Positions 31,561 to 34,717 of a stretch of 64,000 nucleotides of DNA are shown in pieces. Numbering within the stretch: the stretch's first letter is position 1; each line of letters begins with the position of its first letter. The position numbers and the translations under genes are program-made. Source of the DNA: an uncultured Bacteroidales bacterium (GTDB lineage Bacteria > Bacteroidota > Bacteroidia > Bacteroidales > Paludibacteraceae); the NCBI GenBank assembly GCA_902792535.1, contig CADAZU010000008.1, positions 29,814-93,813 on the forward strand. The letters run 5' to 3'. Under the pieces are notes generated by a model, which worked only from the letters and a program-made list of their open reading frames with translations, was not told where the DNA came from and ran no database searches.

Positions 31561-31968
31561 ATGGCTAAAATTAAATTTGAACATCCCGTTACGGAGATCA
31601 CGGGCGCACTAACCAAGCATGGTATCATCAACCGCCGCAAGTCATTCCGCGATGACCGCGGTAGAGTTATTTTCGAAGGAGCACCGGAGGCATATGCCGT
31701 CCGCCATCCTCGGGACTGGACCAAAACGCCGGCTACCGGCAACGAACTCGCGCATCATAACCGCTGGAGACAAGCCTGCCAACAGGCTTATGCCGAACTC
31801 CATGACGACACGCTCAGAGCCGATTGGCAGAAACGCTTCGACGCGCAACTCAAGCATGCCACGGCGGACACTCCGATTGACTCCAAAACCGGCAATTATA
31901 AGCATTACCACCGCCTCGATGCCTTCGTCCGTGCCGTCATCTATGCCCGACTCAAAGCCCAGCAATAA
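31561..31968 (+). CDS. Small protein, recurrent family member
   Basis: A 135-residue basic protein of unknown function. The N-terminus MAKIKFEHPVTEITGALTK matches in layout the proteins at 38545 (AKISPMTHIDTMSGKYAK) and 38873 (GKPVFLDPIDYISGKISR): a short strand, then I-x-x-(I/M)-(S/T)-G. The C-terminal half (NRWRQACQQAYAELHDDTLRADW) resembles the protein at 12298. No signal peptide or catalytic motif is seen. It has its own promoter and a repetitive leader, and is followed by an array of hairpins. I recognise this style of small protein from Bacteroidales genomes, where several copies occur per genome, but no function is known to me. Confidence 0.7.
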   Translation: MAKIKFEHPVTEITGALTKHGIINRRKSFRDDRGRVIFEGAPEAYAVRHPRDWTKTPATGNELAHHNRWRQACQQAYAELHDDTLRADWQKRFDAQLKHATADTPIDSKTGNYKHYHRLDAFVRAVIYARLKAQQ

Positions 31969-31974
31969 CTTCTT

Positions 31975-32071
31975 CGTCTCTTGTTCTGGCATCTAATGCC
32001 GGTTTCTTCGTCTCATGTCCCGGCATCTGATGCCGGTTTCTTCGTCCCGTTCGCGGTACTTTAGTGCCGCG
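31975..32071. repeat. Array of three hairpins separated by a TTTCTTCGTCTC spacer
   Basis: TGGCAT-CTA-ATGCCG (31987-32001), CCGGCAT-CTG-ATGCCGG (32020-32036) and CGCGGTACT-TT-AGTGCCGCG (32052-32071, two-base loop). Each is preceded by TTTCTTCGTCTC or a close variant, about 34 bases per unit. It follows the small-family gene directly. Confidence 0.75.
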
Positions 32072-32256
32072 TATACCCTCTTTCTACCTCTCGATAACCC
32101 CGCTATATCGATCTCTCGATTTCTCGGAAGAACCCTAAATATGCCTATTCCTGCCTAAATCTGCCTATTCTTGCCTAAATCTGCCTAAAGTGGCATATTC
32201 TGGCATATTCTGGCATATTTTCTTCTTTTCCTCTTGCATATCTCGAAAAAAAGCAG
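32072..32256. other. Non-coding stretch with CCTA/GCATATT periodic repeats
   Basis: No gene seen. Positions 32141-32220 hold GCCTATTCCT / GCCTAAATCT / GCCTATTCTT units of 10-11 bases, then three copies of TGGCATATTC. It lies upstream of the promoter at 32257. Confidence 0.6.
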
Positions 32257-32264
32257 TACCTTTG
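32257..32264 (+). promoter_or_regulatory. Promoter of the structured leader RNA
   Basis: TACCTTTG followed by CACCC, with TTG at 32234-32236, 20 bases upstream. It is one of the best promoter matches in the window. It is 313 bases upstream of the first protein gene, so it makes a long leader or an independent RNA. Confidence 0.8.
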
Positions 32265-32269
32265 CACCC

Positions 32270-32556
32270 GCAATGCAGAAAAAAGGCACTGCCACCTATA
32301 CCGATGATGCAAAATCGGTAACAAATTGACATAAATAGCGCAAAGCGTTGCGCAAATAAGCATTACTATTATTTCGCGTTTAGCCAAGAGCCTCGGAAAC
32401 TTATGGAAATAACACGACATGAATAGTCACGTTGTCTCGTAGAGATAACCTTGCGGACTTAATAAGTAGCTACGTTAGTGTAGTTTCTTAAAGTCCGTAG
32501 AGGTTTCCATCCGAGGCCGCCTCAAGCTGAACGCGAAAAGAAACTACACTTTTTAA
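32270..32556 (+). ncRNA. Candidate structured RNA or attenuator leader upstream of the exonuclease-BRCT gene
   Basis: About 285 transcribed bases without a normal gene. Helices seen: TACCGAT/ATCGGTA (32299-32305/32314-32320), GCGCAA/TTGCGC (32338-32343/32348-32353), TTTCGCGTT/AACGCGAAA (32372-32380/32530-32538), GCCTCGG/CCGAGGC (32390-32396/32511-32517), TCTC/GAGA (32435-32445) and CGGACTT/AAGTCCG (32454-32460/32491-32497). These nest into one domain. A competing or pseudoknotted 13-base perfect helix joins 32477-32489 with 32538-32550 and is followed by TTTT, like a terminator. A tiny reading frame (MQKKGTATYTDDAKSVTN, 32273-32329) could be a leader peptide. I do not recognise a known RNA family. 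Confidence 0.6.
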
Positions 32557-32576
32557 TATTATACTAATATCTACCC

Positions 32577-33434
32577 ATGCAAGATTTTATAGCAGTTGAT
32601 TTTGAGACCGCCACATTCAGTAAAATGGCATGCCAAATAGGCGTTACCATAGTGGAAGATGGTGTTATAAAAGGTACTGTGGTTGATTATATCCAGCCGC
32701 CTGATAATAAATATGAAATAGGCTGTATCAACGTACATCATATTACACCAGAGATAACCGCCAATGCCCCTTTATTTGATGTTATTTGGCAGAATTACAA
32801 AGAGTTATTTGAGAATTATCCTATTGTTGCCCACAACGCACCTTTTGACGAGTCAGTATTGCGTGCAAATTTAGATTATTATGGTATTCCTCATCATAAC
32901 ATAAAAAAATTTATTTGTACATACCAAATTTATCAACTGTCACTAGATAAACTCTGCTGGGTTTTCGATTTGCAAGACGAAGGTCACCATGATGCAGGCT
33001 TTGACTCATTACGTTGTGCACAATTCTATAATTTCTATTTGCAAGGAATACAGCCGGATTTATCAAAATTAGCCAGTTACATTCCAGAAGAGGAACGAAA
33101 AAGAAAGATTATTCAACACCAGCAACTTAAAGGAGATGTATTGAGAAAAGACTTGTCAGGTGCAGATACTAGTAACCCGTTCTATAATAAAAAAGTCGTA
33201 ATTACTGGAGTGTTTGATGTGGAAAGAGAAGAACTGGCAAGAAAACTAAAGTCTTTAGGAGCGGATATAGATACAGCCATTTCAAGACGAACGAACTTTG
33301 TTATTATAGGTCGAGAAGCTGGTCCCTCCAAATTAGCAAAATTACAATCCTTGATTGAGAACGGTTATAATATCCGACAACTAGGACAACAGGAAGTATC
33401 ACTGATTATGTCAGACGATTTAAGTACAATATAA
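32577..33434 (+). CDS. DEDD-family 3'-5' exonuclease fused to a BRCT domain
   Basis: A 285-residue protein. Residues 1-165 are a DnaQ-like exonuclease: FVDFET-type motif I (AVDFETATFS), HNAPFDESVLR as motif II, and HDAGFDSLRCAQFY as motif III with the DEDDh histidine, so the catalytic set looks complete. Residues about 200-275 are a BRCT domain like that of bacterial DNA ligase (NPFYNKKVVITGVFDVEREELARKL). The gene is AT-rich compared with the core and starts 27 bases after the leader RNA's T-run. The expected activity is 3'-5' degradation of DNA or RNA. Fusion with BRCT suggests recruitment to nicked or phosphorylated DNA structures (inference). It is followed 3 bases later by a BRCT-BRCT partner. 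Confidence 0.85.
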   Translation: MQDFIAVDFETATFSKMACQIGVTIVEDGVIKGTVVDYIQPPDNKYEIGCINVHHITPEITANAPLFDVIWQNYKELFENYPIVAHNAPFDESVLRANLDYYGIPHHNIKKFICTYQIYQLSLDKLCWVFDLQDEGHHDAGFDSLRCAQFYNFYLQGIQPDLSKLASYIPEEERKRKIIQHQQLKGDVLRKDLSGADTSNPFYNKKVVITGVFDVEREELARKLKSLGADIDTAISRRTNFVIIGREAGPSKLAKLQSLIENGYNIRQLGQQEVSLIMSDDLSTI

Positions 33435-33437
33435 AAT

Positions 33438-34178
33438 ATGGAGAATAACTTATTTATACCACAGAGAGAATTGAAAGACAATCCTTTCTACAACAAGCGG
33501 GTTGCGTACATAGGCAATTTTACAATAGATAACAGAACGCTATCCAAGTTACTAAAGCATTGGGGAGCAGAAGTAAATAATACCATTTCCAAAGCCACAA
33601 AATTTGTGCTGATTGGAACTAACCCTAACCCGGAAAAGATATCAAAACTTGATACATTGTTGCACGATGGCTTTTCTATAAGAAGACTCTCACAGACAGA
33701 TATAGACCTTATATTTCAGGGTGAAAATTGGGAAGATTATACGACCTTAGATGAAGTAATTAAAGATCTTGATTTTACTATTGAGCACTTCAATCAACAT
33801 CACTATACCTTCGACGAAGGGGTACGAAATAAGATTGCAGGCAAAGAGTTATATTTTTGCGGCGGCTTTCGCGAGGACAAATATGCCATTTCGCAAATCG
33901 CAGGTAATCTAGCAGCATGGTGTAATCATATGTTATCATCGCAAATACAAATCTTTGTACTAAGCAATTCTACTATTGAAAAACTCAAACAAGGAGAGAA
34001 AGATGAGAATATTTTAATGATTCAAAACTATTATAATCGGAACAAAACTGACAAATTCGATTTTAGTTTTATGACAGAGGATGACATACTTAACTTTGCC
34101 AAACTCTGGATTGAGACCTACGACGACCAAGTTCTCAACTCTTTGCTTCAACGTTATCTGCAATCTAATTACGTATAA
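33438..34178 (+). CDS. Tandem BRCT-domain protein
   Basis: A 246-residue protein with two BRCT-like regions. The first (about 15-90) begins NPFYNKRVAYIGNFTIDNRTLSKLLKHWGAE and is clearly similar to the BRCT of the upstream exonuclease (shared NPFYNK start and ISK/ISR-x-T-x-F-V-x-I-G pattern). The second is weaker (KELYFCGGFREDKYAISQIAGNL, about 140-165, with a diverged remainder). No nuclease motif is visible. It lies 3 bases downstream of the exonuclease gene, so the two are surely co-expressed and may interact through their BRCT domains (inference). No annotated system with this pair is known to me. Confidence 0.7.
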   Translation: MENNLFIPQRELKDNPFYNKRVAYIGNFTIDNRTLSKLLKHWGAEVNNTISKATKFVLIGTNPNPEKISKLDTLLHDGFSIRRLSQTDIDLIFQGENWEDYTTLDEVIKDLDFTIEHFNQHHYTFDEGVRNKIAGKELYFCGGFREDKYAISQIAGNLAAWCNHMLSSQIQIFVLSNSTIEKLKQGEKDENILMIQNYYNRNKTDKFDFSFMTEDDILNFAKLWIETYDDQVLNSLLQRYLQSNYV

Positions 34179-34201
34179 TATTTAGAAAAATTAAATTCGA
34201 T

Positions 34202-34717
34202 ATGAAAAGGTTATTTGTAGCATTGATGCTATGTATGATTGGTTCCTTAGCGTATTGTAAGATTATTTCTCTCGGTAATGGATGGTCTAAATACTATGAC
34301 CAGTCATTCATGAATAATGAGATAGAAGGTCGCTATTCGGTAAAGATTGACGACAAAACACATTTCGGTTTCTACATTGACATTACTGAAGAAGGTGATA
34401 CATTATGTACGCTTAATATGGAAAACTGGGAGGAAAAGGGTCTAAAGAAAATTTACTATTTCTTCGAAGATAAAGCTACTTACTATTTTAATGTCTTTCG
34501 TAATAGCGAAACACAGAGAGTGAGAATGATAAGTTTCAGTTATGATGAATATGATGATTTTACAACCGGTTTCAATGCAGAAGGATTAGGTCAGAATAAA
34601 CTTGCATTACAATGCGCGCTCGACTTACTTAATGGCTACGCTCTTAAACTGATCTGCCCCAAGAACATGGAAGAATTTCAAGAGTTGAAAGAACTTACCG
34701 TTCCCGGTATCGAATAA
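34202..34717 (+). CDS. Small secreted protein of unknown function
   Basis: A 171-residue protein with an N-terminal signal peptide (MKRLFVALMLCMIGSLAYCK), AT-rich, 23 bases downstream of the BRCT gene. The mature part has beta-strand-like alternation and many aromatic residues. I do not recognise a family. It may be part of the same transcript as the exonuclease and BRCT genes, or a separate cargo gene of the island. Confidence 0.6.
   Translation: MKRLFVALMLCMIGSLAYCKIISLGNGWSKYYDQSFMNNEIEGRYSVKIDDKTHFGFYIDITEEGDTLCTLNMENWEEKGLKKIYYFFEDKATYYFNVFRNSETQRVRMISFSYDEYDDFTTGFNAEGLGQNKLALQCALDLLNGYALKLICPKNMEEFQELKELTVPGIE

What the first reader, a model, noticed from the sequence alone, without database searches (positions are those of the whole stretch)
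32257..34717. Structured-RNA plus exonuclease-BRCT plus BRCT-BRCT module
Seen: a strong promoter, about 285 bases of folded leader, a DEDD exonuclease fused to BRCT, 3 bases later a two-BRCT partner sharing the NPFYNK start, then a small secreted protein, all AT-rich in a GC-richer genome. Known: DEDD exonucleases and BRCT domains both act at DNA ends or nicks. Inference: an RNA-linked or RNA-regulated nucleic-acid processing or defence module. I know no described system with this set of parts.
Basis: partly seen in the sequence, partly recalled or inferred. Interest (0 to 1): 0.75.

Follow-up and report, generated by a model that had tools for sequence, protein, structure and literature searches.

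The report
Shuffled RNA leader of defence genes
The folded RNA in front of this exonuclease gene is one copy of an apparently undescribed RNA family that sits just before the start codons of many DNA-modification and cell-surface genes in gut Bacteroidales, where it probably acts as a switch for them.

Summary
The anatomy is mostly real: promoter box, a roughly 190-nt structured leader core, an exonuclease-BRCT gene, a BRCT partner 3 bases later. The grouping as a defence module is not supported. The leader (core 32365-32553) is a dispersed RNA family without an Rfam match. A covariance model finds it in 99 of 151 genomes of the genus sample and 56 of 150 of the family sample; a wider model finds it in 0 of 295 other genomes of a phylum sample. 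The BRCT partner is in 5 of 151. I read 162 copies: 154 lie -8 to 70 nt before a same-strand start codon; of 158 downstream genes, 76 are labelled DNA methyltransferase/restriction, 55 envelope modification, 3 this exonuclease. Covariation exceeds every shuffle, including a 14-bp pseudoknot-forming 3' helix followed by a U-run. G-U outnumbers A-C 3.5- to 11-fold, so it works as sense-strand RNA. Two strands each have alternative, covarying partners, as in a switch. Near-identical cores precede unrelated genes, with identity at background beyond 50 nt, so the leader is shuffled as a unit. Best reading: a cis-acting attenuator-type leader RNA, signal unknown. The exonuclease-BRCT layout is ordinary.

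The parts
32257..32264 (+). Bacteroidetes-type -7 promoter box TACCTTTG (consensus recalled)
   Evidence: read; 77 of 162 copies have TAnnTTTG within 200 nt upstream, against 12.4 (sd 2.9) in base shuffles
32338..32353 (+). small hairpin GCGCAAAGCGTTGCGC upstream of the core
   Evidence: inverted repeat; a loose pattern for such a hairpin fits 100 of 162 copies within about 90 nt upstream, no control made
32360..32375 (+). conserved 5' flank GCATTACTATTATTTC; may pair with the P2 junction (second pseudoknot, suggestive only)
   Evidence: CTATTATT at the 5' edge of 154 of 162 copies (the models used to find them include this stretch); duplex test
32365..32553 (+). structured leader RNA core
   Evidence: 128.3 bits with R1, E 2.1e-21 (the window was one of the 21 rows behind R1); covariation
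32372..32384 (+). P1 5' arm, pairs with 32526-32538
   Evidence: 92% complementary; helix 1, 86.4% of cells paired
32390..32397 (+). P2 5' arm GCCTCGGA, pairs with 32510-32517
   Evidence: fold; in A4 95.5% of cells paired, 9 of 10 pairs with double changes (helix 4)
32468..32483 (+). P4 hairpin; its 3' strand is shared with helix T
32477..32489 (+). helix T 5' arm, pairs with 32538-32550
   Evidence: 13 nt, 100% complementary; in A2 96.5% of cells paired, 11 of 14 pairs with double changes
32538..32550 (+). helix T 3' arm (tail), crosses P1-P3
32550..32554 (+). U-run at the end of helix T
   Evidence: at least 5 T in 8 bases in 155 of 162 copies, 2.4 expected from composition
32577..33434 (+). 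DEDD exonuclease fused to BRCT (downstream gene of this copy)
33438..34178 (+). partner with N-terminal BRCT; C-terminal domain unresolved

Best explanation
It is a cis-acting leader RNA: a roughly 190-nt core that is transcribed with the gene behind it and sets whether that gene is expressed. Supported by sequence comparison: the helices P1-P4, the pseudoknot-forming helix T with a U-run, the sense strand, the place just before start codons, and two shared strands with competing partners (P4's 3' strand pairs with P4's 5' strand or with the tail, making T; in copies with a start-codon hairpin, P1's 3' strand pairs with P1's 5' strand or with downstream sequence, making hairpin X). Inferred: P4 forms first during transcription and T then replaces it; T with its U-run stops transcription (or, where T abuts the start codon, blocks translation), and an unknown signal acting on the P1-P3 body decides. 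The targets are mostly DNA methyltransferase/restriction genes and envelope-modifying enzymes, i.e. genes that could alter phage sensitivity; in the window it is an exonuclease-BRCT pair.
For: Covariation above both controls. G-U 472 against A-C 99 in the nested helices and 132 against 12 in T of A2, 410 against 118 in A4. 154 of 162 copies are -8 to 70 nt from a same-strand start codon. U-run in 155 of 162. T more stable than P4 in 74 of 74 distinct strand sets, mean -17.1 against -8.1 kcal/mol. Hairpin X fits its own copy better than swapped ones, -9.2 against -6.9, sd 0.16, n 108. Promoter boxes upstream in 77 of 162. In the genus sample, 57 of 106 methyltransferase genes with an N-terminus have a listed RNA hit, and of 20 fetched from the other 49, 11 have one too.
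Against: No expression data. No ligand, protein or trans RNA is known. Helix T encloses about 50 nt and crosses P1-P3, which is unusual for an intrinsic terminator; the terminator scan (loops of 3-8 only) cannot and does not report it. For T, 7 of 500 shuffles reach the observed number of pairs with double changes, though 0 of 500 reach its covariation score. Some model pairs are poor (A4: one pair unpaired in 60 of 94 rows, helix 9 only 60.6% paired). Start-codon hairpins (ATTGATAG within 65 nt) are in 113 of 162 copies only, not in the window, so of the switch elements only T with its U-run is common to all classes. Swapped-partner controls still pair (T -13.1, X -6.9), so part of the fit is general conservation.
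Confidence: 0.62

Rival explanations
1. It is a stand-alone small RNA ended by helix T and the U-run, acting in trans; the gene behind it is a passenger.
For: U-run after a strong helix in 155 of 162 copies; three copies (of seven loci scanned) follow tRNA-Ala genes; the core, not the flanks, is what stays alike.
Against: 154 of 162 copies lie just before a start codon on the same strand; some abut the ATG (L156, L163, L172); gene classes are strongly non-random.
Confidence: 0.15
2. It is mainly a mobile or recombining DNA unit (MITE-like, single-strand transposition or cassette site) whose fold matters as DNA.
For: 69 RNA pairs at least 88% identical (not independent of each other) stand before genes of different families, with identity at background beyond 50 nt on either side; palindromes upstream and before the ATG.
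Against: G-U exceeds A-C on the sense strand; same orientation and short distance to the gene; no second strong hit in the stretches fetched (besides the main hits only L197 28.6 bits and L250 22.1 bits antisense, L241 23.4 bits); none found in phages, plasmids or viral contigs by searches with one copy or one pattern.
Confidence: 0.12
3. RNA and exonuclease-BRCT proteins form one ribonucleoprotein defence system.
For: Exonuclease-BRCT and partner lie side by side in five genomes of the genus sample, and the leader is before the exonuclease of the closest relatives; the exonuclease resembles PADLOC candidate PDC-S48 (E 3.3e-23).
Against: The RNA is in 99 of 151 genomes, the BRCT partner in 5 of 151; the pair occurs without a detected leader in L045.
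Confidence: 0.03

Closest known systems
Riboswitch and attenuator leaders (as a mechanism class)
   Same: Structured 5' leader with mutually exclusive helices and a 3' helix followed by U's, just before the gene (class features recalled).
   Different: No Rfam family matches; the downstream genes share no obvious metabolite; the 3' helix is a long pseudoknot.
JUMPstart (RF01707) and epsC (RF01735) leader motifs of PMC2864571
   Same: Leader RNA elements tied to cell-surface polysaccharide genes (function recalled; names, taxa and Rfam numbers seen in table passages).
   Different: Other taxa (gamma-Proteobacteria, Bacillales); neither Rfam family matches here; here the genes are mostly methyltransferases and single envelope enzymes.
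PRK06195-type exonuclease-BRCT proteins (NF004844)
   Same: Same exonuclease-BRCT layout, E 3e-32 over residues 3-273; similar proteins in 50 phage records, mostly Staphylococcus and Streptococcus, 26-32% identity in the 15 rows shown.
   Different: 112 bits against a cut-off of 373, so not a member by that model; here paired with a BRCT protein and preceded by the RNA leader.

Membership tests
Any Rfam 15 family | match at gathering score | tested here: not met
   window: 0 matches; 31900-33000 up to E 10: four sub-threshold hits; seven related loci up to E 1: one sub-threshold hit
6S RNA (RF00013) | match to the family in this genome | tested here: not met
   0 of 1 genome; the same search rings in 5 of 14 control genomes
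cis-regulatory leader RNA (riboswitch-like) | conserved RNA structure with covariation on the sense strand | tested here: met
cis-regulatory leader RNA (riboswitch-like) | consistent position upstream of genes | tested here: met
   154 of 162 copies
cis-regulatory leader RNA (riboswitch-like) | mutually exclusive structures | tested here: met
   P4/T and P1/X in copies with a start-codon hairpin; by sequence only
cis-regulatory leader RNA (riboswitch-like) | changes expression of the downstream gene | not testable with these tools
   needs reporter or transcript data
riboswitch proper | binds a small ligand | not testable with these tools
   needs in-line probing
NF004844 (PRK06195) DNA polymerase III epsilon-like | score over the curated cut-off | tested here: not met
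   112.3 against 373 bits
two-BRCT protein | second BRCT domain | tested here: inconclusive
   C-terminal half at pLDDT about 32-45

The most novel reading that the evidence does not exclude
A transferable RNA switch: one structured leader class, shuffled as a unit among unrelated genes, that places restriction-modification, other nucleic-acid enzymes and envelope-modifying enzymes of a whole Bacteroidales family under one (possibly phage- or envelope-related) signal.
Probability: 0.35. Interest if true: 0.88.

Novelty: new variant of a known kind. Interest (0 to 1): 0.72.

Why it matters
If right, it is a new structured RNA class with strong comparative support and a clear gene set, open to direct tests. 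It would show how uncultured gut Bacteroidales control DNA methylation and surface modification through one RNA that is passed from gene to gene, a question usually approached through invertible promoters and protein regulators (recalled, not looked up).

Tried and rejected
6S RNA, tmRNA or a tRNA-like element: no Rfam match, no tRNA or tmRNA in the window. Exonuclease-specific leader: rejected by the dispersed copies. Presence on phages, plasmids or viral contigs: none found with one copy by blastn and one exact 23-base pattern; these are weak tests for a divergent RNA. Diversification of copies inside a genome: not seen; 65 within-genome pairs are slightly more alike, 0.738 against 0.719. 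Second pseudoknot between the 5' flank and the P2 junction: duplex -8.7 against -5.5 for shuffled but -7.9 for swapped junctions, so only suggestive, and no better than shuffled in the window itself. Start-codon hairpin covariation: small, -12.5 against -11.8 swapped. A small H-type pseudoknot-like element upstream, seen by eye: one exact pattern match in the genome; not pursued. Relatives of the BRCT partner in viral contigs: none. Paper searches listed no paper whose title or abstract start describes such a leader; only passages found by term were read in PMC8040213 and PMC2864571, other papers only as listings; most subscription papers are not held.

Full report
OBSERVATION. The window holds a -7-type promoter box (32257-32264), a leader, an exonuclease-BRCT gene (32577-33434), a BRCT-containing partner (33438-34178) and a small ORF (34202-34717). 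The leader folds with z -7.6. The second BRCT of the partner is not established, and the small ORF has no match in the stretches held for 12 exonuclease relatives (tblastn, E 1e-3, some stretches short).

THE LEADER IS NOT SPECIFIC TO THE EXONUCLEASE. A DNA search of 101 genomes gave matches to some part of the leader in 39 of 101, mostly short ones in the genus, and in G033 a match over most of the core (85% over query 98-297; L022) before an unrelated gene, an EcoRI-type adenine methyltransferase (Pfam run on the same place, L153). I aligned 21 copies (one of 22 candidates, L029, was left out because its tail is broken off) and built covariance model R1. R1 has matches in 99 of 151 genomes of the genus (41 of 60 high-quality ones), 56 of 150 of the family sample (17 of 33 genera) and 9 of 198 of the order sample, three of them G000 and two of its family. 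Each sample includes G000. The wider model R2 (94 copies) matched only G000 among 296 genomes of a phylum sample. With many genomes the tool uses stricter filters that lose weak matches, so these are lower bounds.

STRUCTURE. On 94 distinct rows of A2 (100 of the 162 copies), 88.5% of cells pair (shuffles 73.4%), 38 of 48 pairs show double changes (shuffle mean 32.1) and the covariation score is 0.477 against 0.208, 0 of 500 shuffles reaching any of these. On A4 (94 copies chosen for diversity): 87.1% (68.3%), 44 of 48 (37.8), 0.541 against 0.209, again 0 of 500; sliding by 1-3 columns drops pairing to 32-43%. Not all modelled pairs are good: in A4 one pair is unpaired in 60 of 94 rows and helix 9 is 60.6% paired. 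Both alignments were fitted to R1, which favours that structure; but the first MAFFT alignment, made without structure, already gave helix T with RNAalifold, and the 21 sequences, folded singly with both ends held unpaired, share by eye P1 and the P3/P4 stack. Helix T joins P4's 3' strand to the tail across P1-P3: 96.5% paired (shuffles 91.1%), 11 of 14 pairs with double changes (shuffle mean 7.1, 7 of 500 reach it), covariation score 0.340 against 0.232 (0 of 500); in the window it is 13 nt with 100% complementarity. T is not among the pairs of R1 or R2. G-U pairs outnumber A-C 472 to 99 (A2 nested), 132 to 12 (T) and 410 to 118 (A4), which places the function on the sense RNA strand.

POSITION AND GENES. 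They were taken mainly from the best-scoring hits, so they are not a random sample. My script finds a same-strand ORF after 158; 154 start at -8 to 70 nt from the core, 110 of them at 40-60 nt; four start farther off (L103, L118, L127, L157) and four have none (L083, L110, L129, L246). Labels come from single-linkage BLAST clusters named by the Pfam match of a representative: 66 EcoRI-type methyltransferases and 10 other DNA methyltransferase/restriction genes (76); 25 MBOAT, 16 sulfatase-fold, 8 acyltransferase-3, 5 glycosyltransferase-like and 1 HAD (55, called envelope-modifying by inference); 3 exonuclease-BRCT; 4 small HTH-like (named by eye); 20 others. From the gene side, one search lists 117 places of PF13651 in the genus sample; I used the 106 with a usable N-terminus (11 fragments dropped). 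57 of 106 have an RNA hit in the capped list. Of 20 fetched from the other 49, 11 have an R2 hit at E below 1e-11 on the gene's strand, L279 has a weak one (21 bits), and eight have none on that strand, of which L262 is cut at a contig end and L265 is partly masked; L264, L275, L277 and L279 look by eye like divergent leaders of the same plan.

SHUFFLING. Among RNA pairs at least 85% identical over 170 nt, 161 precede genes of the same family and 93 genes of different families. In 69 pairs at least 88% identical with different downstream families (pairs share members, so they are not independent), mean identity is 0.92 in the core, 0.73-0.84 in the flanking leader, and 0.57-0.59 beyond 50 nt on either side, against a random 0.56. 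Some unrelated methyltransferase/restriction genes also share their first residues (MAGN or MAKN in L143, L193, L181), as if the leader brought the first codons along.

SWITCH. P4's 3' strand can pair with P4's 5' strand or, more strongly, with the tail (T): T is stronger in 74 of 74 distinct sets (mean -17.1 against -8.1 kcal/mol), and matched tails fit better than swapped ones (-17.1 against -13.1). In copies with a start-codon hairpin, P1's 3' strand can also pair with downstream sequence (X): -9.2 against -6.9 swapped, sd 0.16, n 108. A U-run follows T in 155 of 162. In G000's other copy (38.3 bits with R2, E 3e-4; L219) T-like strands form 17 pairs with one mismatch at -20.1 kcal/mol, and six U's then lead into the ATG of another gene. 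From this I infer attenuation by T; the direction of control and the signal are unknown.

THE EXONUCLEASE. The fusion resembles NF004844 (E 3e-32 but below cut-off) and proteins in 50 phage records (40 with at least 80% of the query covered). The partner gene is found in 5 of 151 genomes of the genus at high score (a sixth, G146, is a BRCT-length hit). The closest relatives have the leader (window, L041, L048) or, by eye, a divergent leader of the same plan (L042-L044; L042 z -5.3); L045, L046 and L047 have no hit, and none is seen by eye before the exonuclease of L050. The upstream sides of L002, L003 and L006 were not properly examined (two matches lie on the minus strand of the stretch printed). 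So leader and pair are separable.

WHAT IS KNOWN. No Rfam match at gathering scores in the window, and only sub-threshold hits at relaxed thresholds in the core and seven related loci. Paper searches with these terms gave no description; this covers only the open-licence library, and only two papers were looked into, by passages.

Noticed in passing
L219:1490-1660 (G000:C33:20019-20175): A second, divergent copy in the window's own genome; its U-run abuts the ATG of an ORF that looks ATP-grasp-like by eye (family not searched).
   Followed up: partly
L264, L275, L277, L279; L042:5806-5989, L043, L044: Leaders that by eye have the same plan (P1, P2, P4/T, U-run) but little sequence likeness to R1/R2; L275 folds with z -7.2 and L042 with z -5.3.
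   Followed up: partly
L105, L121, L179: Leader copies right after tRNA-Ala genes on the same strand (3 of 7 loci scanned).
   Followed up: no
L157, L236, L244, L252: Leader in front of small HTH-like proteins (about 71-84 aa), which could be regulators (by eye; no Pfam match for L236).
   Followed up: no
L042:5775-5801 and, by eye, many copies 60-110 nt upstream of the core: A recurring CGTC-loop-GACG element followed by TAAA, whose loop can pair downstream, like a small H-type pseudoknot.
   Followed up: partly
window 31986-32036: Two near-identical short hairpins (GGCATCTRATGCCGG) each followed by TTTCTTCGTC, just after the upstream gene.
   Followed up: no
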